A stretch of 64,000 nucleotides of DNA, taken from positions 186,001 through 250,000 of the forward strand of contig VCJN01002002.1 of assembly GCA_006384855.1 (NCBI GenBank), written 5' to 3'. Of this stretch, positions 24,944 through 47,790 are shown piece after piece. The DNA comes from Tetraselmis striata. Taxonomy: Eukaryota; Chlorophyta; Chlorodendrophyceae; Chlorodendrales; Chlorodendraceae. The notes under the pieces were generated by a model, which did no database searches, was not told the DNA's origin, and was given only the letters and a program-made list of their open reading frames with translations. Both the position numbers and the translations under genes were made by a program. Position 1 is the stretch's first letter; each line of letters starts with the position of its first letter.

Positions 24944-27900
24944 CTATTCCTGCCCATCATTCTTCGGAGCCGCGTCACGTCTGCTGTGCTTCGGATGCTC
25001 CTGGTCGAGGTGCGCGCGTGCCGCCGGGCGCGAGGCCATCTCCCACGGCCGCGGCGACTGCAGGTGGCTCGGCAGCCGCACCTCCCCGCCCACGACCCCG
25101 CTGGGCCGGGCCGCGGGGTGCATCTGCAGGATGTTCACCATGAACTCCCGGGCCGCGGGGGAGACATAGCTCCGCGGGTTGCTCACCAGGAAGAGCGCTG
25201 CGCGGCACAGCACCCGCAGCAGCGGTCAACCCACCCGCACGCAGGCGACACCGGCCATAAACGACGCAGCGCCCCGCACCACACCGCCGCGCGTGGTTCG
25301 ATGACAAGCCGCATCGGCACACGGGGACTTGATACCCGTGATCGCATGGCATAACCGCGCCGGAATTTCGCTCTTAGGACCGATGTACTATCCCACGTGA
25401 CATTCGATAGTAGGAACTCAATTTCATCAATCGGCCGACAACTGTTTTCGCAGAGGTGTAGTACTCCCATGGCACCCGGTGGCAGAGGGGGGGGGGGGGG
25501 GGGGGGGGGGGCGGGCGCACTGCGCAGCATCCGCAGGCCGCGGATGGACACGCGCGCGACCAGGCCGAGCTCCACCTCCTTGTCAATGGAGGACGTGCTC
25601 ACAAACGCGACGCCGAGGTTGCACCTCACCGCGCTCTTGATGGCCTCCACCGAATTGAACTCCTGCGAGCGGCCCAGCCGGCGGGTCGGGGCGTCAATGG
25701 CCGCCCTGCACCGTACCCCCGGCGGCGGGCGTCGCCCGCACGTACCGATTTCGAGGGGGTTCAGAGCGTAGAGAGTGCTTTGGACAGTCAAAACGACGCT
25801 GAAGGCGTATGGCGCGTTGTAGAGCCACATCGTTGTATGCGCTTAATTGTCAAGCACTGTCCCGGAGGCTCACGGTACCGTACTGCATCTCCAGGTGGGG
25901 GTGAGACTGTCAGCACATCCCTACGTCGCGATATATCACGGCTGCGGAACCGAAATTCTTGGCACAGTGTAGATGCGCCACGATTGTCTTGCCCCGCCCG
26001 GTCGTGTACATATGTTTCGATGTATCGCGACCCAGGACACTGCGAATACTGCGACGAATCCGCCCTGCCTGCCATAGGTCAAAAGCAGACGAAACTATAG
26101 CGCAACTATAGCGGATGTTCTTATAGGTTGCATGCAACAAGCCACATGTGAGGCTTGTAATCAATAAGGGCTCTCACAGGTGCGTCGGCCCCCGCGCTTG
26201 CCAAAGCGCAACCACAACCCTCTTTGCAAGAGCGCACGTCCCCGCTGCATGCGTGCCCCCCCCCCCCCCCCCCCCCGCCTGGCACGCCGGCGCACCATTG
26301 CAATGTTGAGCTGGCTCCACTTGATCCCGTGCTGCTCCAGCGTAGAGGCCTGGACGGCCTGGTGGGGGCGGGTGCCGCGCGGGCAGGCGCGGTCAGGGCG
26401 CGAGTCGCCGTCACCCTCCGACCCCCTCAAAGCAGCCCGCGATTGGGCGGAACCTCTGCTCGGCCGCGGGGTGGATCGCTCAGCTGTGGCCCTTTGCGGG
26501 GTCGGGTTACCATACAAAGGCCGGTGCCAACTTGGCCTTCAGAGGGCGGCACGCTACGCGCTATAGTTAGCGCACCCTATGCGGGTTTGTGCACCCGGGC
26601 CGTAAGACAGGTGGCCCGTGTAGCATCAAAGACTGAGCGGGAAGAAAGTTGTACAAAACTTCAAAATTTACGTTGCCGATGGTGCGGACGTAAAGAGGAG
26701 GGAAGGGGTGGACTCGGGGAGGGTGAGCTAGGGGGGAATGAGGGATATCGGTTCTACGGAGCACCCCAAAACGCAGGCAGAAGCGCAGACAGAAGCGAAA
26801 GGTTGCCGTTGTTGGAGCGGCGAGGACCTGTGTCCCAATGCCTGGCTGCAGGCAGAGACAGAGACAGAGAGAGAGAGGGAGAGAGGGAGAGAGGGAGAGA
26901 GATGTGGAGGGAGAGAGGTGTGGAGGGCATCCATCATGGATGTGGTCTCCCTTCCAGGGGGGGGAGCATGCCGCCCGCAGTCTGACCGAATGGTGGCGGG
27001 TGGAAGGAGACCGGAAGGAAGGGGGTAGCAACGGGAGGGGGGGGGGGGGGGGGGATGGACCTGCACGGAGGAGTCCTGATTGACGGTGACAAAGCTGAGC
27101 TGGAAGAGGTCCTCTTTGTCGATCATCTTGACGGAAGCCAGCGGGTGCTGCAACGGCGCGCCCGCAGTCAGATGACATCGCGGGGTAGAGGGGGCAGCAC
27201 ATGTGCGTCACAGGGAAGGCTGAAGAGAGAGAGAGAGGGAGGGAGAGGGAAGGAGGGGGGGAGTGGTCTTGCATGGCGCCGTCGGGGGTTTGCGGGCATC
27301 ACCCGCACCCCAAACACAGGTGAACGGCTAAGCCCTCCAGAGGTTCGGCCAATATGTATCTTTCGTGTTTTGAACACTGAAAGATTAAATATTGTCCGCA
27401 GGGCCAGCAAAATATAACGAACTGTTTTCTTTACTCCTTCGCGTCGGAATGTTCTGGCTGTATTCATGGTATATTCGCAAGTAAATCATATCAAAATATA
27501 CCGGTTTTTGCCGCTCCCTGTTTGTGTTGAGGTAGGGGAGGGGGGGGGGGGGGGGGGGCTGGGCTCAAACACGTCCTTTCTCTGCGGACCGTTTGTGTGT
27601 GTACGGAAGACGTATCGTCGCTTCATGTCAGGTTCCCCGTACGGCAAACCCGGCATGTTGAGGCGCGATGTTCTTCCAATGTGGCGCCACAAACGCGATT
27701 TTGGTGTGCTTTGTGAACGAAGCAACAAATGGCCGGTGGTTGCCCGGCCATTGACCGGTTTTTTGTGCGGGCGGTGCACGGTGTCGCTCAGGGAGAGGGG
27801 TCGGCGTGCATCAAGGGCAGGCCGGGGGCGGTCATGGCCGCCCGCTCACCTGGCTGGGCACGATGAGCACCAGCTCGTCCATGGCATACGGAGTGGCGAC

Positions 27901-30900
27901 CAGCTGGGTCTGCATGGACTTGGGGACCTCGCCACCCACGATGGCGACGTCCACCTCCCCCGCCTCCACGGCCGCGCATATCTGCCGGCTGGACCCCACC
28001 TGCATCGGGGCGGAAAGGCACGGTCAGTGGCCGCGAGGATAAGTGGCAACACGAGGCAAGAGGAGATGGCCGGGCGTGCCGGGGAAGGGGGGGGGGGGGG
28101 GGGAAGGGGGGGTGGTCGTCACCTGCAGCTGCACGTTGACCTCCGGGTTCCGATCCCGAAACATCCCTGAGGGCGGCACAGCGACACTTGAGATGTGCGC
28201 CCCGCGCGGCCTTGAGGCTCTTAATGCTTCTCCGAGCTGCGAACCCCCACCCCCCCCCCCTTCCTATTTCCTTTCACATGCAAAAAGTCCCGCTCTGTCA
28301 TGCACATGCCTAAAATGCGTCCGGTTTCACATTCGCAATTCACGAGGCGCTCGTAGCGATGAAAATTCGCGTTCTGGGTGGAGGGGCGAGATACGGAAAG
28401 TGGGAGGTGGATAGGTGGACCTCTCGCCGCATACTAGCACAGGAGAAAGGAAAGTTGAGAGGCGTGCAGCACTGAACGAGGAGGCGGTGCCTGGCAGTGC
28501 CCTGACTGTGCGTTGATCGGCACAGTGAAGCCGGGTACGGGTGCGGGCGCAGCATTGAGGACGTGCTTTCAGAGAACACACCCTAATGCCATTTTGCTAT
28601 TAGAATTATACGAGCCGATGACAAGCACGTCAAATAATACGCAAATTAGGAACCACATTCGCTGGCGCCCTACCGATGAATATCCCGCTCCACAAAACAC
28701 AAGCCCATGTGGAAGGAACAGCAGCGCAGAACAGCAGTCGCGTCGTCATCTAGGGTTTCTTGTGTTTAGGCTTTAATTCCTAAACATAATACCCTGAACC
28801 TAAATTCCTACATGACTGACAGGGGCGCACCGATGAGGCGCGGCATGAGGTAGGTGCCCGTCGTCTGGCTGGCGCCCAGGGACACCGTCCCGGTCTTGAC
28901 ATCCCGCACGTCCTCCATCGCCTGCCGTATTCAGTTGCAGCGCCCCATCCCCGCCTCAGCCCTCAGCGGCCCAGCACACCCATCCGCCGGGCGACCATCA
29001 TGAGAGCAGCCCAGGCGACCTCACAGGCAGCCAGCGGACTTGGGGGCGCCCGCCCCCGCGCACCTTGAGCGCCTCCCTGGCAAAGCGCATGATTCGCTTG
29101 GCGTAGTAATGCAGCAGGTGCCCCGAGTCCGTGAAGACCACGTCCTGCGCAGTCATAGCCAGGTCAGTCCATCGCAACCGCATTGCCGAGACCGACTACG
29201 GTGGCTACAGCAGGGTGGCCACGCAGTTAGGTGCCTCCCTCCCGGGTACCACGGGTAGGCGCAACAGCGGGAGTGCTGCCCCCCTGGCGGAACAGCAAAA
29301 ATACGAGGCGAGCTCTTTGACTTGCACGACAGGAAATGCACTAATAAAGTCTGATGAATAGCGCTACAGTACGGGCGCCGACCCGACTCCCTGGGTAGAA
29401 GAACCCGCGCAGTTTTGGCTCTCATCAGAAAAGGGGTGCTTGCGAATGCTATGAATTATCGGAATGATTTCGTGATGTATTCGTCTGAATTTGGACCAAC
29501 AAGGACATCGCGCGTTCTTGTTTCTTTTGTTCTTATAATCAGGTCGGCACCCGTAATAAAACTGATGAAATAGCGGGATGAGTCGTACGACTTCCTGCCC
29601 GCCCTGCTACTGCCTGAAGCACAGCAGATAGTCTGTACTGAGGCCCAATGTAGTAATTTGAATTGCTCCAGTCATTGCAGGGGTGGTACCACCGATCGTC
29701 GCGGAGGAATGATCTGTGATCACTTAGTTGTCCAACTGCGGCATGTGTGGAGAAGTGTACCGCGGGCAGCGGAATGACATTGCATGAAGGGCCCAGCATC
29801 GCTGGATACCAAGATGCAATCCCTTTTTCTGCACAGGCACGGCAACAGGCACTGCGGCTACGGCCCTGGAACTGTCGTGAGGTCACGTGGTTGACGTGGG
29901 TGGGTGCAGCGGGGTGCGGTTTCGGACCTGCCGACCCGAGCCCTCGTGCTCCTTCACCGTGAGCTCCGTGTCGAAGGCCTTGCTCAAGCGCGTAATGCAA
30001 ATCGAAAACTGGGAGCGCACCAACAACACAAGGGCGGGGATCAGCACCCGGAGGGCAGAGGGGGCGCGGGGATTGTGCGGGCCTGTTTGTTCAGGCGGCC
30101 AGGGGCTCGAGCCGCTGGATGCTGATGGCCCGGCAGCGCGTCGCCCGGCTGCGCTTGCCAGAACGAGGCGAGCGCGGGAGCTGAACCCTCCCAGGGCGGC
30201 GCGCTGCGGCTGATGTGGCACTGCTGTGTGGCCGGCAAAGCGTGGGACTTGGGGGCTGCCGGCGTATCGAAGCGGTGCGGGGGCGCGCACATCACACCCA
30301 TGACAGCAACTCGAACCAAACACATCGGTAAGACAGCAACTGCACAGCTAGGGCTGCAGTCAGGCATGAGCCCAATAGGGCCCGGGTGACGCCCTTTTAG
30401 CTGCCTCCAGGCATGATGCGGACTGGGCGCAATAACCAATACCACACCGTATATGAATAGTTTAGATACCCCCCCCCCCCCCCCCACCCACCCCCAAGGG
30501 GGAATGCATGACTTAGCCCACAATCACAACGTCGGTTTCCATCAATGGATGGTTCATGCGTACGAGTCGCTACACAGATACACTCCGGCAAGGCTGAGCC
30601 GGCACAGGGATTCTCCCTCCGACGTTGACACCGATACGTGGAATGGGGCGTCTGGGCGCCTACAGCAGAGCCAGTCATCTTGAACGCCGCTGCGGTCTCG
30701 ATGAGCGTCTTGGACTCTCTCACGGCCTGCGCGGGGCGGCACGCCGGGGTGCGCATGTCAGTGGGTGCTGGGAGGCGGCGCTGTGGAAGGCATGCGGGGC
30801 GCCGAGTCCTACGCGCCGGATCAACTGATCGCGGTTATTAAGGATCGCTTCAGTGTTTTGAGGGATGAACATCACTCCAACGTGTTGCGACACGACCCAA

Positions 30901-30973
30901 AAGTGTTCCTTTATATATAATATATGCGTACATATATTTGTAAATATGTGTATATATACATTTATATACATAT

Positions 30974-31013
<40 letters not shown>

Positions 31014-33619
31014 AGGGAGGCGGGGATGGGGTGGGGGGGATGGAGATGGAGGAGAAAGAGGGGGAGAGAGGGCAAGGTTACACGGATATGTGGGCTGAGC
31101 AAGGGCGCCGCTCAATTCCTGTTATTTGGTGCACAGCCAGGCAGGCCATCACCGCTTTCAACACGGTGGACGCATGTTGCTCCATTTCAATGCAACAATG
31201 CACAACGGGGCGAGCGGCTGGAGATCGGGACGGCCACAACGGGGCGGGCGGCTGGAGATCGGGACGGCCTTAGGAGCACCTCAAACAGTTCCAGGTCCTT
31301 CAGCGTGAACGGCAGCGGCCTGACAACGTCCGGGCTGGGCTGCGCGATGGGCAGCGCCATGCGGCGCGCCCAGTGGCTGCGGTCCGTCAGCGGGCGCTGC
31401 ATCCCGCAGCTCTCCAGCATCGCGTCCGTGACGGGCTCCCACTCGAGGCGCGCCCGCCGCGGCCGCCCCACTCTGGGCGCCGCCGGCTTGTCGTCCCCGT
31501 CCGGCCCTGGCGCGCCCTCGCTCCCGGCGAGCTGCAGCTCACAGCCGTGCTGCGCCAGCGGCAGCAGGTTCAGCAGTCGCTCGTCCTGCGAGGACGGTGG
31601 AGGGACAGACTCAGCGAGCCGGCGATGGACCTCAGACTCACGCCAGCGAGAGGATGCGCGCAATGGTGCGCCACTTTCAAGCATTTAATATCTTCCAAGA
31701 CACAACACGGACGCTTCACAGTGGCACGGCCATTTACATAGCTGCCACACAGCTATGTTAACGGCCGTCAGTCAGGCACCGCCACTTGCAATGAGAAAGC
31801 AGACCACAGGTGAAGTGAACGGGAGCAGCGCGGCGCCGCCCCCTCTGCCGTGAGAGGATATATGTACCCGGAAGGCAAACAGCGCAAGATGCCACCAATC
31901 AGCCGTTCACTGACATATTTTACAAACGAATTTCTGCTAATCGATAGGTAAAGCCCAAGGAGAGAGAGTCTGTGGGTGTGTTTGGGCGGGGGGGGGGGGG
32001 GGGGGGGGGGGGTTCGGACCTGCAGCGAGAGCTCCCCCTCCAAGCGACATACAATGCGCGCATCAAACGCCTCCAGCAGCAGCAGGCGCTGCGCCTGGGA
32101 ACAGTAGCGGCCCGGGTTGGTCACGACGGAGATGCCTGCGTGCGGGCCCAGGAGGACAGCGGAGGGAGCCACAGTCAGTCTGCGGGGCTGCACGCTCAAG
32201 CCTGAGGGCAGCCAGCCATGGGACCCGGCTCCTGGCCGGGAAGGTGCTCAGTCGCCCTGGGACGCACAGTCTCGGCGATGACTAGCGAACCGCAACCCCA
32301 CAGACGCCAATGCACAGCCATGTTCCATCCTGCATTTGGGGCGGTGCTCACTTGCGACGGGCTCCACATGCTCCACTGGCAGGTGCACCAGGCGGCCGGC
32401 GTCAATGCCATCCCGCACCGCCGACGCCGGCAGGAATGCGCCGCCCACGCCTGCGGCCACCAGGCTGCGCACTGCCTCCAGGCTTCCCACGAGGCGGCGC
32501 ATCTTCAGGCGCGACATCGACACGCCCGCTGCCTGCAGGTTGGGGGCGTACGCGGCGCCCTCGCCGAGGTTCGCCGCAAAGGCGCACAGGTCCAGGCGGT
32601 ACAGCTCCTCCAGCGTGATGAAACGCCGGCTGGCCTGCGGGTGCGATGGCGACAGCACCAGCAGCAGCGGCTCCTGCGCGACCTGGGCGCTCTGCAAGGA
32701 GAGGGGGGGGGGGGGGGGGGAGGGGGCATTTAGGCCGAGGGCGAGGCTGCTGGAAATATCACGCGCATCGGCATACGTATTGGTACACGCCTTGTTATGG
32801 CCACGAGCAGTAGCAGCAGCGATGGCACCAGCATTGGCATCGTCATGGGCGGTAGCGATGGCACGAGCAACAGTATCGGCAATAACATTGGTGCAAGCAC
32901 CAGACCGGGTGCCGGTGCGGCAATACATAAGAGCACCGAATATTCCTACTCGTTGCATGCGGATTATTTTCGAGGTCTGATGGCTGCCGCGGCGTCCATG
33001 GTGTCAGCGGCATTGGCATTGACATTGGCATTGGCATTGGCATGATCGATGCTGTTGCTATGCCAGGTGCTGACAAGGTGAACGCGGTGATGGTCCGAGG
33101 CTCGATCCCGGCGGACAGCAGGCCGCCGCCTCCCACCTCAGCCCAGGCAACGCCCTCACGCTCCCACATTTGGTTGTACAACCCTGCAGGCAGCCAGCCG
33201 TCCCGCCCTGCTTTGCCCTTTTTGGTCAGAGACCTGCTGTTTGCGGTGGACAGCGCCTCACCTGCAGGCTGTCTGCCACCTCGGGCGGCAGCTCCTGCGC
33301 AATCAGACCGCAGTCCAGGTGGCCGGCCGCAATGGCAGCGCACACCACCTGCGCGTCCGCATGCTTGAACTCCAGGTCCAGCGTGGGGTGCTTGGCGAGA
33401 AAGCGCGCAGCCAGCTGCGGCGCAAGGGCGGCGCTCGCGGTGGGGCACGCGCCCAGGCGCAGCGTGCCGATGCGCACCTGGTTGAGGTCCGCCAGCGCCT
33501 GGCCACCAGCACCCAGGGATGCATTCGGCAGCTGCAGCTCAGTGCCCGCCGCGCATGCTGCCCTCGGATGTTCAGCTCACAAGCATGGGAGGCATACCCC
33601 CTGGCGCAGTGCGAGTGTG

Positions 33620-33667
<48 letters not shown>

Positions 33668-34625
33668 CGTGTGTGAGCGGGGAAGCAGGGGGGGGGTTGA
33701 GTACGTACCACCTGCGCCTCATGTGCCAGCAGCAGGATCTGCTCACTGTAGTGCAGCATCAGCTGGCCCGCATCAGAGAGGTGCCCAGCATAGCGAGCGC
33801 TGTCGCTGGGGTTGCTGCGGCGGGGCCGTGTCAACGGGGGTGTTCAGGTGGTCATTCGGCGGAGGGGGCAGGCTGTTTGAGCGAGAGGCTGCTCGGGGTG
33901 AAGGTTTGGGCAGGTGATGAGGTTAGGCGGGGCTCACCCTTTGAAGAGCAGCACCCCCAGCGTCTGTTCGAGCCGCCGTACTAGGACCTCCGCCCAGTAG
34001 GGTCTCCGCTTCGCGGCTGCAGCGCCGCGCTCGCGGCTGCGGTAGTGTGTGATGGCCCACAGCACCTTGTCGCCCGGAGGAGTCGTGCGGGCAAAGAAAT
34101 GGTGGTGAGTCGGACGGCGGGAGCTGTCACATATGGAAAGGGGCGCAGACATAGGACGAAAGACAAGGGCATAGGCGGGGAGGGGATACCTGCAGCTGCG
34201 ATAGCTTAATCGGATTAGGCAGGTGCACGTCCTCCGCCTCAGGCGCCGCCGTCACAGAAGCCGCCGCCCCCTGCCGCCGCCCCCCGCTCCCATGCGGCGT
34301 GGACTCCCCCGATGGCGGCACCGACCGCCCGGCGGCAGCAGTGACAGGCAGCAGCCTGGGCTGCGACGTGCCGCCACGCACCTGCGCAAAGCATCACACG
34401 CGGTGAGTGCGCAGCGGCGAGACGGCCAGCGGTGTGAGGCGCTGCTCTCGAAGTGTCGGGCGCCGCAGCCGAGCCACGCCGCGGAACCCTCACCACCTTG
34501 CGGGCGGCACGCACCTGCTCTCGGCGCCCAACGCAGTGAGACCGCGGGCTATTCCCGCACTCGCTGCGTCGCGGTTTTGCCCAGCGCTCCCCCAGGGCGA
34601 TGGCAGCGGCCAGTCTCAGCGCCAT
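24944..34625 (-). CDS. Tandem double LysR-type transcription regulator, RbcR-like, 18 exons
   Basis: Exons: 34515-34625, 34190-34381, 33938-34065, 33709-33814, 33262-33498, 32352-32691, 32020-32135, 31280-31585, 30664-30726, 29928-30008, 29064-29144, 28831-28921, 28123-28166, 27850-27999, 27061-27147, 26296-26358, 25521-25662, 24944-25197. Every exon ends in the phase the next one needs, giving about 863 residues. Residues 1-80 are basic and Ala/Ser-rich, a likely plastid transit peptide. Two LysR modules follow (detailed in their own entries) with a linker at about 411-500. LysR proteins are DNA-binding regulators with an N-terminal winged helix and a ligand-sensing domain; RbcR/Ycf30 controls Rubisco and photosynthesis genes in cyanobacteria and many plastids. 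A nuclear, two-in-one form is unusual. The exon 7 to exon 8 splice (phase 0, CAG/GTCCGA to TCGCAG/GAC) joins the modules. The alternative is two adjacent genes, but module 2 has no start with its own transit peptide. Confidence 0.82.
25488..25511. repeat. Poly(G) tract next to exon 17 donor
   Basis: Sense-strand poly(C) starting 9 nt into the last intron of the double-LysR gene. Confidence 0.9.
26055..26180. repeat. Dispersed intronic repeat A, copy 3
   Basis: Shares CCGCCCTGCCTGCC, AGGTCAAAAGCAGACGAA, GGTTGCATGCAACAAGCC and GAGGCTTG with the copies at 12765 and 14388. Lies between exons 16 and 17 of the double-LysR gene. Confidence 0.65.
26852..26912. repeat. GA microsatellite
   Basis: (GA)n/(GGGAGA)n run in the intron between exons 15 and 16 of the double-LysR gene. 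Confidence 0.85.
27037..27054. repeat. Poly(G) tract next to exon 15 donor
   Basis: Sense-strand poly(C) starting 6 nt after the exon 15 donor. Confidence 0.9.
27418..27612. repeat. Dispersed intronic repeat B, copy 2
   Basis: Same order of blocks as 6848-7015, including the G tract (27540-27558) and GCGGACCGTTTGTGTG. Lies in the intron between exons 14 and 15. Confidence 0.6.
30965..31080. repeat. GA-rich microsatellite
   Basis: (GA)n at 30976-31008 followed by G-rich purine sequence, in the intron between exons 8 and 9. On the sense strand it is a long polypyrimidine run. Confidence 0.85.
31204..31269. repeat. 33-bp tandem duplication just after the exon 8 donor
   Basis: A unit holding CAACGGGGCG, CGGCTGGAGATCGGGACGG repeats twice. 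The donor of exon 8 is at 31280, so the duplication is intronic and starts about 10 nt downstream of it. Confidence 0.85.
31988..32012. repeat. Poly(G) tract next to exon 7 donor
   Basis: Sense-strand poly(C) starting 8 nt after the donor that links module 1 to the linker exon. Confidence 0.9.
31990..34224 (-). other. LysR module 1 (residues ~95-410): divergent regulator half
   Basis: The DNA-binding part begins [15 protein letters not shown] across an intron and runs through [20 protein letters not shown] to TLGVLLFKG, which aligns with the classic LysR helix-turn-helix and wing (..LE..LGV.LF.R). It is followed by [19 protein letters not shown], the linker-helix start. The effector domain has [18 protein letters not shown], then [28 protein letters not shown] and [15 protein letters not shown]; these match RbcR positions one by one, but the sensing residues have changed (the usual GASQTTGTY is absent). 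It may bind a different signal or none. Confidence 0.8.
33622..33670. repeat. GT microsatellite in intron 4
   Basis: (GT)n run of about 45 bp downstream of the exon 4 donor of the double-LysR gene; (CA)n in the sense direction. Confidence 0.9.
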
Positions 34626-36414
34626 CGCGGACGAGTTGGGGCGGAGGTGGGGTGTGTGGGGGTGAGCGCTGCCGTCATCCGCGCCGAGCCGCGCCGGTCA
34701 TACCGTCACTGGCACCGATGTCGCGCTGACAATCAGTACTGGCACGGTCCGGGGCTTGGGCGAGCGCAGGCCTGGGAGCCCAGTAGCGCATATATGTCCG
34801 GAGCGTGGAGACAGCTGACAGCAGCAGCGGGGTGACCGCGAATTGCGCCTGCGTCGGTGGGCTTGAGAGAAGGGGGAAGGGGGGGGGGGGGGGGGGGCTT
34901 TGGGCTCGACCCTGTGGCGCGCCATCATCACATCGTCAGGCGGACGGCGAGACATGATGCTGAGCAGACGACGCCGACGGCAAGCCTCGCGCGGCCTCTC
35001 TACGGGTACGGTGTGCTGGCCGTCGGCCAACGTGCCCATGGCGGCCGGCTACTAATCCTTACTGCTGAAAGCGAATAACTACATGCTGAACGCGCGCGTG
35101 CGGGGTGGGCCGCCTGCTGCGACACGGGGTTGACAAGGTCAGGTAATGGATATATACACGTTACATTCCATGATACGGACATGAAGCCACCAAGCTATCT
35201 CAGCATCCGCTGGAATAGTCGCGATAGTATAGTGGTCAGTATCCCTGCCTGTCACGCAGGAGACCGGGGTTCAATTCCCCGTCGCGGCGCGACTCGATCT
35301 CCGAGATCTGCACCAGAACAGGCACCCACGAAACAGTGGGCAATTCTTTTCGTTTTTCCGGCTATCCTCCTTAATCCTCCTGCTCACACGCACGGACCTG
35401 TGGCGGGTAAAGGAAAAGGCTTCGGAAGTGATCCCAGCCTCCTGAAACATCCTCGTCCTCGGCTGAATTCCACCAGTACATTGATGCAATATTGCACTGC
35501 TGGGCTGCTGGCAATGTACTCGTAATTCGTACTCGTACCAGTACCAAGGATTTTAGTCCGAACCAGCACTACCGGCACTACGGGGCGGCAACAGTTATTT
35601 GCCAGTCTCGACTCCTCATTGACTCTTACCTCCTCGGTCTTCACCAAGTAATACGTGTCCGATGGGTACCGGTTCCACAGATCCACGTGCTCCCCCCGCC
35701 CCCTACTCTCTCCCTCCCTCTCCCCGTCTCTCTCCTCTCCCTCTCCCTCTCCCTCCCTCCCTTGTCTTACTATCTCATCTCTCATCTCTCTCCCTCTCTC
35801 TCCCCCCCCCCCCCCTCTCTCTACCATCATCTCTTTCTCCGTCTCCCTCCCTCTACTCTCATCTCGTCTCCCTTCCCCCAACTCTCACTCACTCTCTCTC
35901 TCTCTCTCTCTCCCTCTCCCTTTCTCTCTCAATACGTGTTTACCAGTTCCACACTACTTCGTTCAACTTGAGGAAATGGCCATAACTCCAGAGAAGTGGA
36001 TTGAATCATGCCTCAAACTTAAATTGCGGGACATCAACAGGCTAGAGCTTATGACTCATCAGATATCACACATACAACCATTGGCTCTACATGCCCTTTC
36101 CGACTACAACGCATGCCGTCATGTAGCGGCCCACAATCTAGGAGCGGATGATCATGAGTGCGGCATGCCGGGCGGCGGCTTCACCCCCAACCTCCATCCA
36201 CGTGGTGGGTGCTTTTGCGCGCTAGTAACGCCTAGATACGACCTGTAGTGCGGCCGTGCCCGGTTGGGTGCGGGAGGGTTCTGAGTGGGGTTCCCGGATG
36301 TCGTTGATCCTCGGATCGTGCGACGACCGGGAAGCCAAGAAGCCCTAACTACGGGCGGGGTGTGTTTGAGTTTTGACAATAATACGCGGAGTCCCGGGGC
36401 GCCCGCAACCAGGC
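34621..36414 (+). repeat. Left arm of large inverted repeat (~1.79 kb)
   Basis: Reverse-complement copy of 46003-47790. The arm begins at 34621, within the ATG-GC of the double-LysR start codon, and covers that gene's upstream region, a 19-G tract (34879-34897), a tRNA-Asp gene, a long CT-rich microsatellite (35690-35935) and, at its inner end (36150-36414), a DIRS-like block A. Visible differences from the other arm are a few single bases and simple-repeat lengths, so the duplication is recent. Confidence 0.95.
35218..35289 (+). tRNA. trnD-GUC: tRNA-Asp (GUC)
   Basis: A full cloverleaf can be drawn. The 7-bp acceptor stem GTCGCGA pairs with TCGCGGC (one T-G pair). The anticodon stem CCTGC/GCAGG carries loop CTGTCAC with anticodon GTC, and the T arm is CGGGG/CCCCG with loop TTCAATT. 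The internal promoter boxes look intact (A-box-like AGTATAGTGGTC, B-box GGTTCAATTCC). There is no intron and no encoded CCA, as expected for a nuclear gene. It points away from the double-LysR gene, about 590 bp upstream of that gene's start. Confidence 0.95.
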
Positions 36415-46002: not shown

Positions 46003-47790
46003 GCCTGGTTGCGGGCGCCCCGGGACTCCGCGTATTATTGTCAAAACTCAAACACACCCCGCCCGTAGTTAGGGCTTCTTGGCTTCCCGGTCGTCGCACG
46101 ATCCGAGGATCAACGACATCCGGGAACCCCACTCAGAACCCTCCCGCACCCAACCGGGCACGGCCGCACTACAGGTCGTATCTAGGCGTTACTAGCGCGC
46201 AAAAGCACCCACCACGTGGATGGAGGTTGGGGGTGAAGCCGCCGCCCGGCATGCCGCACTCATGATCATCCGCTCCTAGATTGTGGGCCCGCTACATGAC
46301 GGCATGCGTTGTAGTCGGAAAGGGCATGTAGAGCCAATGGTTGTATGTGTGATATCTAATGAGTCATAAGCTCTAGCCTGTTGATGTCCCGCAATTTAAG
46401 TTTGAGGCATGATTCAATCCACTTCTCTGGAGTTATGGCCATTTCCTCAAGTTGAACGAAGTAGTGTGGAACTGGTAAACACGTATTGAGAGAGAGAGGG
46501 AGAGGGAGAGAGAGAGAGAGTGAGTGAGTGAGAGTTGGGGGAAGGGAGACGAGATGAGAGTAGAGGGAGGGAGACGGAGAAAGATGATGGTAGAGAGAGG
46601 GGGGGGGGGAGAGAGAGGGAGAGAGATGAGAGATGAGATAGTAAGACAAGGGAGGGAGGGAGAGGGAGAGGGAGATGAGAGGAGAGAGACGGGGAGAGGG
46701 AGGGAGAGAGTAGGGGGCGGGGGGAGCACGTGGATCTATGGAACCGGTACCCATCGGACACGTATTACTTGGTGAAGACCGAGGAGGTAAGAGTCAATGA
46801 GGAGTCGAGACTAGCAAATACCTGTTGCCGCCCCGTACGTAGTGCCGGTAGTGCTGGTTCGGACTAAAATCCTTGGTACTGGTACGAGTACGAATTACGA
46901 GTACATTGCCAGCAGCCCAGCAGTGCAATATTGCATCAATGTACTGGTGGAATTCAGCCGAGGACGAGGATGTTTCAGGAGGCTGGACTCACTTCCGAAG
47001 CCTTTTCCTTTACCCGCCACAGGTCCGTGCGTGTGAGCAGGAGGATTAAGGAGGATAGCCGGAAAAACGAAAAGAATTGCCCACTGTTTCATGGGTGCCT
47101 GTTCTGGTGCAGATCTCGGAGATCGAGTCGCGCCGCGACGGGGAATTGAACCCCGGTCTCCTGCGTGACAGGCAGGGATACTGACCACTATACTATCGCG
47201 ACTATTCCAGCGGATGCTGAGATAGCTTGGTGGCTTCATGTCCGTATCATGGAATGTAACGTGTATATATCCATTACCTGACCTTGTCAACCCCGTGTCG
47301 CAGCAGGCGGCCCACCCCGCACGCGCGCGTTCAGCATGTAGTTATTCGCTTTCAGCAGTAAGGATTAGTAGCCGGCCGCCATGGGCACGTTGGCCGACGG
47401 CCAGCACACCGTACCCGTAGAGAGGCCGCGCGAGGCTTGCCGTCGGTGTCGTCTGCTCAGCATCATGTCTCGCCGTCCGCCTGACGATGTGATGATGGCG
47501 CGCCACAGGGTCGAGCCCAAAGCCCCCCCCCCTTCCCCCTTCTCTCAAGCCCACCGACGCAGGCGCAATTCGCGGTCACCCCGCTGCTGCTGTCAGCAGT
47601 CTCCACGCTCCGGACATATATGCGCTACTGGGCTCCCAGGCCTGCGCTCGCCCAAGCCCCGGACCGTGCCAGTACTGATTGTCAGCGCGACATCGGTGCC
47701 AGTGGCGGTATGACCGGCGCGGCTCGGCGCGGATGACGGCAGCGCTCACCCCCACACACCCCACCTCCGCCCCAACTCGTCCGCGATGGC
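46003..47790 (-). repeat. Right arm of large inverted repeat (~1.79 kb)
   Basis: Inverted copy of 34621-36414. It keeps the tRNA-Asp gene, the purine-rich microsatellite (46483-46730) and the upstream region of the double-LysR gene, ending in the ATG-GC of that gene's start codon. Beyond 47790 the sequence is unrelated: the copied ATG (47784-47786, plus strand) is followed after four codons by a stop. The G/C homopolymer here is 10 bases (47523-47532) against 19 in the left arm. Confidence 0.95.
47131..47202 (-). tRNA. trnD-GUC: tRNA-Asp (GUC), second copy
   Basis: Identical over the mature tRNA to the gene at 35218-35289, in the opposite orientation, as part of the inverted repeat. Acceptor, anticodon and T stems are all preserved, so both copies look functional. 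Confidence 0.95.

What the first reader, a model, noticed from the sequence alone, without database searches (positions are those of the whole stretch)
24944..34625. One gene appears to encode two complete LysR regulators in tandem
Seen: 18 exons join in phase without exception into one frame of about 863 codons, with a transit-like N-terminus, a full LysR module, a linker and a second full LysR module. The joining splice (exon 7 to exon 8) is phase 0 with canonical signals, and exon 8 itself carries both the linker and the start of the second helix-turn-helix. Known: LysR proteins are single-module, about 300 residues, and act as dimers of dimers; RbcR/Ycf30 is a plastid or cyanobacterial gene. 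Inference: this is a nucleus-encoded, plastid-targeted covalent heterodimer. I know of no described regulator with this layout.
Basis: partly seen in the sequence, partly recalled or inferred. Interest (0 to 1): 0.93.

Follow-up and report, generated by a model that had tools for sequence, protein, structure and literature searches.

The report
Fused twin RbcR-like algal nuclear gene
A green alga appears to carry, in its nuclear genome, one gene in which two copies of a cyanobacterial Rubisco-gene regulator are joined end to end, and both copies seem to have lost the usual DNA-reading surface while one keeps its metabolite-sensing half.

Summary
The 18-exon model holds: minus strand 34625-24944, 862 aa, one copy found, in a green alga. 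Both modules group with RbcR, the cyanobacterial Rubisco-gene regulator, and share two intron sites (chance about 0.001), so a duplication inside the nucleus is likely. One gene is better supported than two: coding composition starts at the exon 8 acceptor, the stretch before it looks non-coding, and the 434-nt interval offers no convincing separate first exon. Against that, the interval holds two TGTAA poly(A)-like motifs and a weak possible terminal exon; no transcript could be checked. 'Two complete regulators' is not supported: of 22 strongly conserved recognition-helix columns module 1 keeps 2 and module 2 keeps 5, while eight other cyanobacterial LysR proteins keep 8 to 13. Module 2 keeps 82 of 145 sensor-domain columns, module 1 43. 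My reading: a plastid-targeted single-chain RbcR pseudo-dimer, with one sensor kept and DNA contact changed or lost.

The parts
34515..34625 (-). Exon 1: start codon and first part of the transit-like N-terminus
   Evidence: composition
34190..34381 (-). Exon 2: rest of the N-terminal extension and start of module 1 HTH (IKLSQLQ)
33938..34065 (-). Exon 3: module 1 HTH with eroded recognition helix ([19 protein letters not shown])
   Evidence: keeps 2 of 22 recognition columns
33712..33814 (-). Exon 4: wing and linker helix of module 1
   Evidence: 11 of 18 linker columns kept
33262..33498 (-). Exon 5: module 1 effector domain, first part; its 5' intron site equals that of exon 12
32352..32691 (-). 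Exon 6: module 1 effector domain
32020..32135 (-). Exon 7: end of module 1 effector domain; its 5' intron site (phase 1) equals that of exon 18; donor CAG|GTCCGA
31586..32019 (-). Intron 7, the contested joint: C25 tract 7 nt after the donor, two TGTAA motifs (offsets 95 and 281), non-coding composition where tested
31586..31684 (-). In-frame ATG extension into exon 8, the only ATG of the interval that stays open into exon 8; GC3 0.58, log-odds -16.4, reads as non-coding
31761..31844 (-). Possible alternative terminal exon of a short module-1-only transcript (28 codons, weak acceptor 3.7, stop 22 nt before a TGTAA)
31280..31585 (-). Exon 8: linker of about 90 residues plus start of module 2 HTH; coding composition in its first 55 codons
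30664..30726 (-). Exon 9: module 2 HTH
29928..30008 (-). Exon 10: module 2 HTH, eroded recognition helix ([14 protein letters not shown])
   Evidence: keeps 5 of 22
29064..29144 (-). Exon 11: module 2 linker helix
28831..28921 (-). Exon 12: module 2 effector domain with [13 protein letters not shown], the motif found in 120 cyanobacterial contigs
27850..28166 (-). Exons 13 and 14 (28166-28123 and 27999-27850): module 2 effector domain
26296..27147 (-). Exons 15 and 16 (27147-27061 and 26358-26296): module 2 effector domain
24944..25662 (-). Exons 17 and 18 (25662-25521 and 25197-24944): end of module 2, C-terminal tail and TAG stop

Best explanation
This is one nuclear gene of a green alga that encodes a transit-peptide-bearing, single-chain pair of RbcR-derived LysR modules. 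Inferred history: an RbcR gene moved from the plastid to the nucleus, gained introns, and duplicated in tandem; the two copies were then joined by splicing exon 7 to exon 8. Inferred working: the protein is imported into the plastid. The two kept linker helices pair within the chain as LysR linker helices do between chains. Module 2's RbcR-type effector domain senses a carbon-fixation metabolite, and module 1 serves as a diverged structural or regulatory partner. Because both HTHs have lost most conserved recognition-helix residues, the protein either reads a changed DNA site or no longer binds DNA by itself and acts through another protein. Shown: exon structure, RbcR kinship of both modules, shared intron sites, unequal conservation, coding composition from the exon 8 acceptor. 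Inferred: the mature fused transcript, plastid import, pairing, ligand, and loss of DNA binding.
For: Exons and frame. RbcR kinship: in the rows printed, module 1 scores 125 to 143 bits with RbcR and at most 53 with the seven other cyanobacterial LysR rows it matches; module 2 scores 221 to 250 against at most 89 with eight others. Both fall with RbcR at 98/98 support. 116 of 116 cyanobacterial genomes match module 1, 113 of them with one hit of 94.8 bits or more, and every other listed hit is at most 73.3 bits. 13 of the 20 loci fetched for the best hits carry the signature [13 protein letters not shown]. Two of five module 1 introns sit at exactly a module 2 site and phase (random placement: about 0.001). 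Fusion: the first 165 nt of exon 8 score +34 bits as coding in frame, reached by 0 of 1172 open (overlapping) intron pieces; the 99 nt upstream score -16.4, with GC3 0.58 against 0.82 to 0.97 in the first 33 codons of 13 (closely related) LHC genes. With each intron scored by a model that leaves it out, the exon 8 acceptor ranks 5th and the exon 7 donor 6th of 17; 46 of 3536 other AG sites of that strand of the window reach the acceptor's score. A C or G tract starts within 20 nt of the donor in 6 of 17 introns, intron 7 included. HTH erosion and sensor retention.
Against: Intron 7 holds two TGTAA motifs. TGTAA lies within 150 nt of the stop in 8 of 12 distinct LHC 3' ends that I could read, so it looks like this alga's poly(A) signal. 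By the window's TGTAA rate 0.30 would be expected in the interval; my Poisson estimate for two or more is about 0.04. A possible terminal exon with a stop 22 nt before a TGTAA exists. This gene's own 3' flank has no TGTAA in 944 nt. Two weak phase-0 donors after an ATG in the interval (4.0 and 2.4) score above the gene's weakest accepted donor (2.3, intron 9). The sister relation of the modules is unresolved in the tree (53/66), with long branches. No transcript, no related algal genome and no structure model were available.
Confidence: 0.6

Rival explanations
1. Two separate tandem-duplicate genes: gene 1 ends inside intron 7 with a short terminal exon and a TGTAA signal, and gene 2 starts at ATG 31684 or at ATG 31420 in exon 8.
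For: Tandem duplicates usually stay separate genes (general knowledge). Two TGTAA motifs lie in the interval; an alternative terminal exon 31844-31761 has its stop 22 nt before a TGTAA; an in-frame ATG at 31684 opens into exon 8.
Against: The ATG 31684 stretch and the read-through of exon 7 look non-coding (-16.4 and -38.3 bits). Coding composition is already strong in the 55 codons before ATG 31420 and begins at a good acceptor (9.9), so exon 8 should be spliced to something upstream. Of the four ATGs in the interval, the candidate phase-0 donors score at most 4.0, and that one would leave a 45-nt intron where the shortest of this gene is 123 nt. Gene 2 alone would lack a clearly transit-like start (net charge -4 from ATG 31684, +2 from ATG 31420). 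Its promoter would have to lie in about 50 bases after the second TGTAA or about 240 after the first.
Confidence: 0.17
2. One gene with two products: a long fused protein and, by polyadenylation in intron 7, a short module-1-only protein.
For: Same TGTAA motifs and terminal-exon candidate together with the evidence for the exon 7 to 8 splice.
Against: The candidate acceptor scores 3.7 against 9.9 for exon 8; 666 of 3536 other AG sites score as well. Its codons show no third-position bias (0.64).
Confidence: 0.13
3. A decaying pseudogene of a nuclear RbcR duplication.
For: Both HTHs are eroded and module 1 is highly diverged.
Against: 18 exons stay open, with coding composition in frame in 17 of 18 (exon 1 neutral; the model was trained on these exons except exon 8). 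The two modules align over 297 columns with a single one-residue gap, and linker helices and module 2's sensor are kept.
Confidence: 0.05

Closest known systems
RbcR of cyanobacteria / Ycf30 (rbcR) of plastids
   Same: Both modules fall in the RbcR clade; module 2 is 38 to 44% identical to the RbcR rows printed and has the same [13 protein letters not shown] loop
   Different: Those are single-module proteins; of 120 cyanobacterial RbcR frames the longest open frame is 462 aa. Here the gene is nuclear, has 17 introns, two modules and eroded HTHs. No plastid-encoded rbcR sequence was available for comparison
NdhR/CcmR and CmpR, cyanobacterial LysR carbon regulators with structures (5y2v, 5z49)
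   Same: Same fold and carbon-metabolite theme; module 2 keeps two Thr and a Tyr aligned to NdhR Thr101, Thr102 and Tyr105 (residue roles from passages of PMC13249358; numbering matched by an offset of 8 that I inferred)
   Different: Sequence places both modules with RbcR; NdhR His130 and Thr201 are not kept in module 2
Nuclear LysR gene reported in Nannochloropsis gaditana (PMC4827209, passages read)
   Same: A cyanobacterial-type LysR gene counted among nuclear genes of an alga
   Different: A single count in a TF survey of another lineage; no tandem layout in the passages read; the same table gives none for Chlamydomonas reinhardtii

Membership tests
LysR-type transcriptional regulators | LysR substrate-binding (effector) domain | tested here: met
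   PF03466 at 117 and 155 bits, cut-off 28
LysR-type transcriptional regulators | N-terminal winged HTH of the HTH_1 family | tested here: inconclusive
   15.1 and 24.4 bits, both below the cut-off 26.6; the 21 HTH_1 hits on other contigs of the assembly score 61.5 to 84.8
LysR-type transcriptional regulators | Single module of about 300 residues | tested here: not met
   Two modules in one frame, if the exon 7-8 splice is used
RbcR/Ycf30 | Closest to cyanobacterial RbcR among LysR proteins | tested here: met
RbcR/Ycf30 | Conserved recognition helix with Gln-Pro | tested here: not met
   2 of 22 and 5 of 22 columns kept, Gln-Pro absent in both; two distant RbcR rows, L129 and L135, keep 17 and 19
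RbcR/Ycf30 | Conserved effector pocket loop [13 protein letters not shown] | tested here: inconclusive
   Identical in module 2, [13 protein letters not shown] in module 1
RbcR/Ycf30 | Binds ATTA(G/A)-N5-(C/T)TAAT near rbcL | tested here: inconclusive
   6 boxes in the 49.7-kb plastid contig against 2.3 expected, none in the stretch upstream of rbcL; protein binding not testable
Plastid-targeted proteins | N-terminal transit peptide | tested here: inconclusive
   Composition fits (13 R/K, 4 D/E, 23 A/S/T in 78 residues); no predictor or localisation available

The most novel reading that the evidence does not exclude
A green alga has turned the cyanobacterial Rubisco regulator into a nucleus-encoded, plastid-imported single-chain sensor that no longer reads DNA by itself: two RbcR modules fused, both DNA-reading helices dismantled, one carbon-metabolite pocket kept.
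Probability: 0.3. Interest if true: 0.8.

Novelty: new variant of a known kind. Interest (0 to 1): 0.6.

Why it matters
In the passages that I read, rbcR is a plastid gene in Cyanophora, red algae, red-derived plastids and Chlorokybus (PMC1781420) and in three Prasinococcales (PMC4194372), and had not been found in other green plastids studied by then. A nuclear, fused and partly dismantled RbcR would show where that gene went in one green lineage. It would offer a testable link between Calvin-cycle metabolites and plastid gene control, and a natural single-chain LysR pair for asking what each module contributes.

Tried and rejected
Relatives in other algae: a genome-contig scan with module 2 and a viral-contig scan with the joined protein found none; no eukaryote collection was open to me. 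A search for a second copy in the own genome gave only this locus plus hits on other contigs in long unbroken frames, bacterial by look. The idea that the modules come from two different LysR families was rejected. The idea that gene 1 simply reads through its last donor was rejected on composition. A homology of the linker with the N-terminal extension gave only E about 1. Eight long open frames of the window gave one sub-threshold Pfam match and five of them no PHROGs match. Literature: among the papers listed I saw, by title and abstract start, none on a tandem LysR protein or a nuclear RbcR in a green alga. Each list is a capped part of its hits (for, 30 of 56), and only the held library was searched.

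Limits of the counts: 12 distinct LHC 3' ends (ending in PGN or GNTGL) of 30 loci were read as true ends; minus-strand loci were not turned and four duplicates were dropped. In one search, 13 distinct of 30 LHC loci were used; four had no start in range, the rest were duplicates or lacked the expected end, and the 13 are mostly near-copies. In one search, 18 of 120 RbcR rows were used. One search used 111 RbcR rows of at least 290 aa (109 distinct), another the same set. One search counts 15 HTH columns for module 2 where one search counts 16. Of one search's 30 fetched loci, 22 were taken into: 15 matched (6 RbcR, 9 other), 6 did not match, L215 gave no frame. Of the nine others, L205 (HTH unreadable: 9 of 49, 2 of 22) is left out of the ranges quoted.

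Mended while checking: I had first read intron 8's acceptor score (16.5) as exon 8's. Exon 8's acceptor scores 9.9: 10th of 17's table, 5th of 17 when each is left out of its own model.
Full report
What is there. Pfam finds the LysR effector domain in each half (117 and 155 bits, cut-off 28), but the LysR HTH only weakly (15.1 and 24.4 bits, cut-off 26.6). Searches with the protein found the gene once in the 224-Mb assembly. The 21 HTH_1 hits lie on other contigs in long unbroken frames and look bacterial (inference). A 49.7-kb AT-rich contig with rbcL and other plastid genes recognised by eye carries a Rubisco large subunit closest among solved structures to 1gk8 (that this entry is from Chlamydomonas is recalled), so the host is a green alga. 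No plastid copy of RbcR turned up, though the plastid contig is partial.

Where the modules come from. In the rows printed, module 2 is 38 to 44% identical to RbcR at 221 to 250 bits, against at most 89 bits for eight other cyanobacterial LysR proteins. Module 1 scores 125 to 143 with RbcR against at most 53 with seven others. In 116 cyanobacterial genomes all have a match to module 1. 113 have one hit of 94.8 bits or more, each in a different genome. Three genomes (G092, G099, G116) have only weaker ones, and every other listed hit is at most 73.3 bits. Of the 20 loci fetched for the best hits, 13 carry the exact [13 protein letters not shown] signature. In a 29-row tree both modules join RbcR with 98/98 support; their own pairing is unresolved (53/66) and both branches are long. 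The two modules align over 297 columns with one single-residue gap at 26% identity. No plastid-encoded rbcR was at hand.

Duplication inside the nucleus. Two of module 1's five internal introns lie at exactly the same residue and phase as module 2 introns. One is before ALADL and AMEDV (phase 0). The other is in the codon before [10 protein letters not shown] and [10 protein letters not shown] (phase 1). Random placement gives two or more such matches with probability about 0.001. A third pair is three codons apart. The simplest reading is that an intron-bearing nuclear RbcR gene was duplicated.

One gene or two. That exons 7 and 8 share phase 0 is weak evidence, because one join in three would fit by chance. 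The stronger evidence is composition. A position-specific model trained without exon 8 scores its first 165 nt at +34.0 bits in frame (-6.6 and -23.7 in the other frames); 0 of 1172 stop-free, overlapping intron pieces reach that value. The 99 nt before it, which begin with an in-frame ATG at 31684, score -16.4, a value that 1214 of 2375 stop-free intron pieces reach. Third-position GC is 0.58 there, against 0.82 to 0.97 in the first 33 codons of 13 mostly near-identical LHC genes and 0.76 in this gene's own exon 1. So coding composition in exon 8 begins at its acceptor, and the exon needs an upstream partner. The acceptor is a good one: 9.9, 5th of 17 when each is left out of its own model, a score reached by 46 of 3536 other AG sites of that strand; the exon 7 donor is 6th of 17. 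The interval has four ATGs. The phase-0 donors after them score 4.0, 2.4, 0.5 and -1.4, and the best would leave a 45-nt intron. Exon 7 ends in a donor followed by a C25 tract. Such tracts (at least 9 C or G) start within 20 nt of the donor in 6 of 17 introns of this gene, against 2.2% of random positions. Exon 7 is therefore the natural partner.

Results against the fusion. TGTAA lies within 150 nt after the stop in 8 of the 12 distinct LHC 3' ends that I could read, so it is probably a poly(A) signal here, and intron 7 contains two of them. At the window rate (47 plus 42 on the two strands) about 0.30 would be expected, and two or more has a chance of about 0.04 by my Poisson estimate. A weak acceptor at 31845 would open a 28-codon terminal exon whose stop lies 22 nt before a TGTAA. 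The gene's weakest accepted donor (2.3, intron 9) is no better than two of the poor donors just rejected. An alternative short transcript, or two genes, is not excluded. Oddly, the gene's own 3' flank has no TGTAA in 944 nt.

The HTHs are not complete. Against cyanobacterial RbcR rows (109 distinct), module 1 keeps 14 of 49 and module 2 keeps 16 of 49 strongly conserved HTH columns, and 2 and 5 of 22 in the helix-turn-recognition stretch. Eight other readable cyanobacterial LysR proteins keep 19 to 24 of 49 and 8 to 13 of 22; a ninth, L205, was unreadable in this stretch (9 and 2) and left out. The RbcR rows are mostly Prochlorococcus and Synechococcus, but two distant ones, L129 and L135, still keep 17 and 19 of 22. 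The Gln-Pro pair at the start of the recognition helix, shown by the RbcR rows printed and 7 of the 8 others, is absent from both modules. By contrast the linker helix keeps 11 of 18 columns in both, against at most 9 in the others. Module 2 keeps 82 of 145 effector-domain columns against at most 49 in the others; module 1 keeps 43. Module 2's [13 protein letters not shown] loop aligns with the stretch that in NdhR supplies Thr101, Thr102 and Tyr105; NdhR His130 and Thr201 are not kept (alignment, numbering offset inferred; residue roles from passages of PMC13249358).

How it most likely works. The N-terminal 78 residues have 13 basic and 4 acidic residues; the 90-residue linker has 12 and 13. 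One transit peptide serving both modules fits this, but no predictor was run. LysR proteins pair through linker helices (NdhR passage). Both are kept here, so I propose an intramolecular pair. Module 2 is the likely sensor of a carbon-fixation metabolite. The review passages name RuBP, 3-PGA and NADPH for the Cyanidioschyzon protein and say that cyanobacterial RbcR effectors are not yet identified (PMC13249358). Whether the chain still binds DNA is open. The plastid contig has 6 RbcR-type boxes against 2.3 expected, none upstream of rbcL, which tells little.

What is known. The passages that I read place rbcR in the plastids of Chlorokybus, Cyanophora, red algae and red-derived plastids (PMC1781420) and of three Prasinococcales (PMC4194372), and describe Ycf30 as plastome-encoded in organisms with form ID Rubisco (PMC9833100). 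One TF survey counts a LysR gene in Nannochloropsis gaditana and none in Chlamydomonas (PMC4827209). The searches named in Tried and rejected listed no tandem LysR protein that I could recognise. I rate it a new variant of a known kind.

Noticed in passing
window 33711-25198, introns 4, 7, 13, 15, 16, 17: C or G tracts of at least 9 begin within 20 nt of the 5' splice site in 6 of 17 introns (about 1e-6 by a binomial estimate); they may be a mark of how introns arose or spread in this genome.
   Followed up: partly
window 24943-24000: No TGTAA in 944 nt after the stop, although 8 of 12 readable LHC 3' ends of this alga have one within 150 nt.
   Followed up: no
window 35218-35290 and 47130-47202: Two tRNA-Asp (GTC) genes on opposite strands about 12 kb apart, the first about 600 bases upstream of this gene's start codon.
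   Followed up: no
own genome, LHC loci L032-L042 (for example contig C1767): Many nearly identical LHC genes, several on one contig, and pairs of contigs with matching hits such as C476 and C1576 that suggest uncollapsed haplotypes.
   Followed up: no
   Followed up: no
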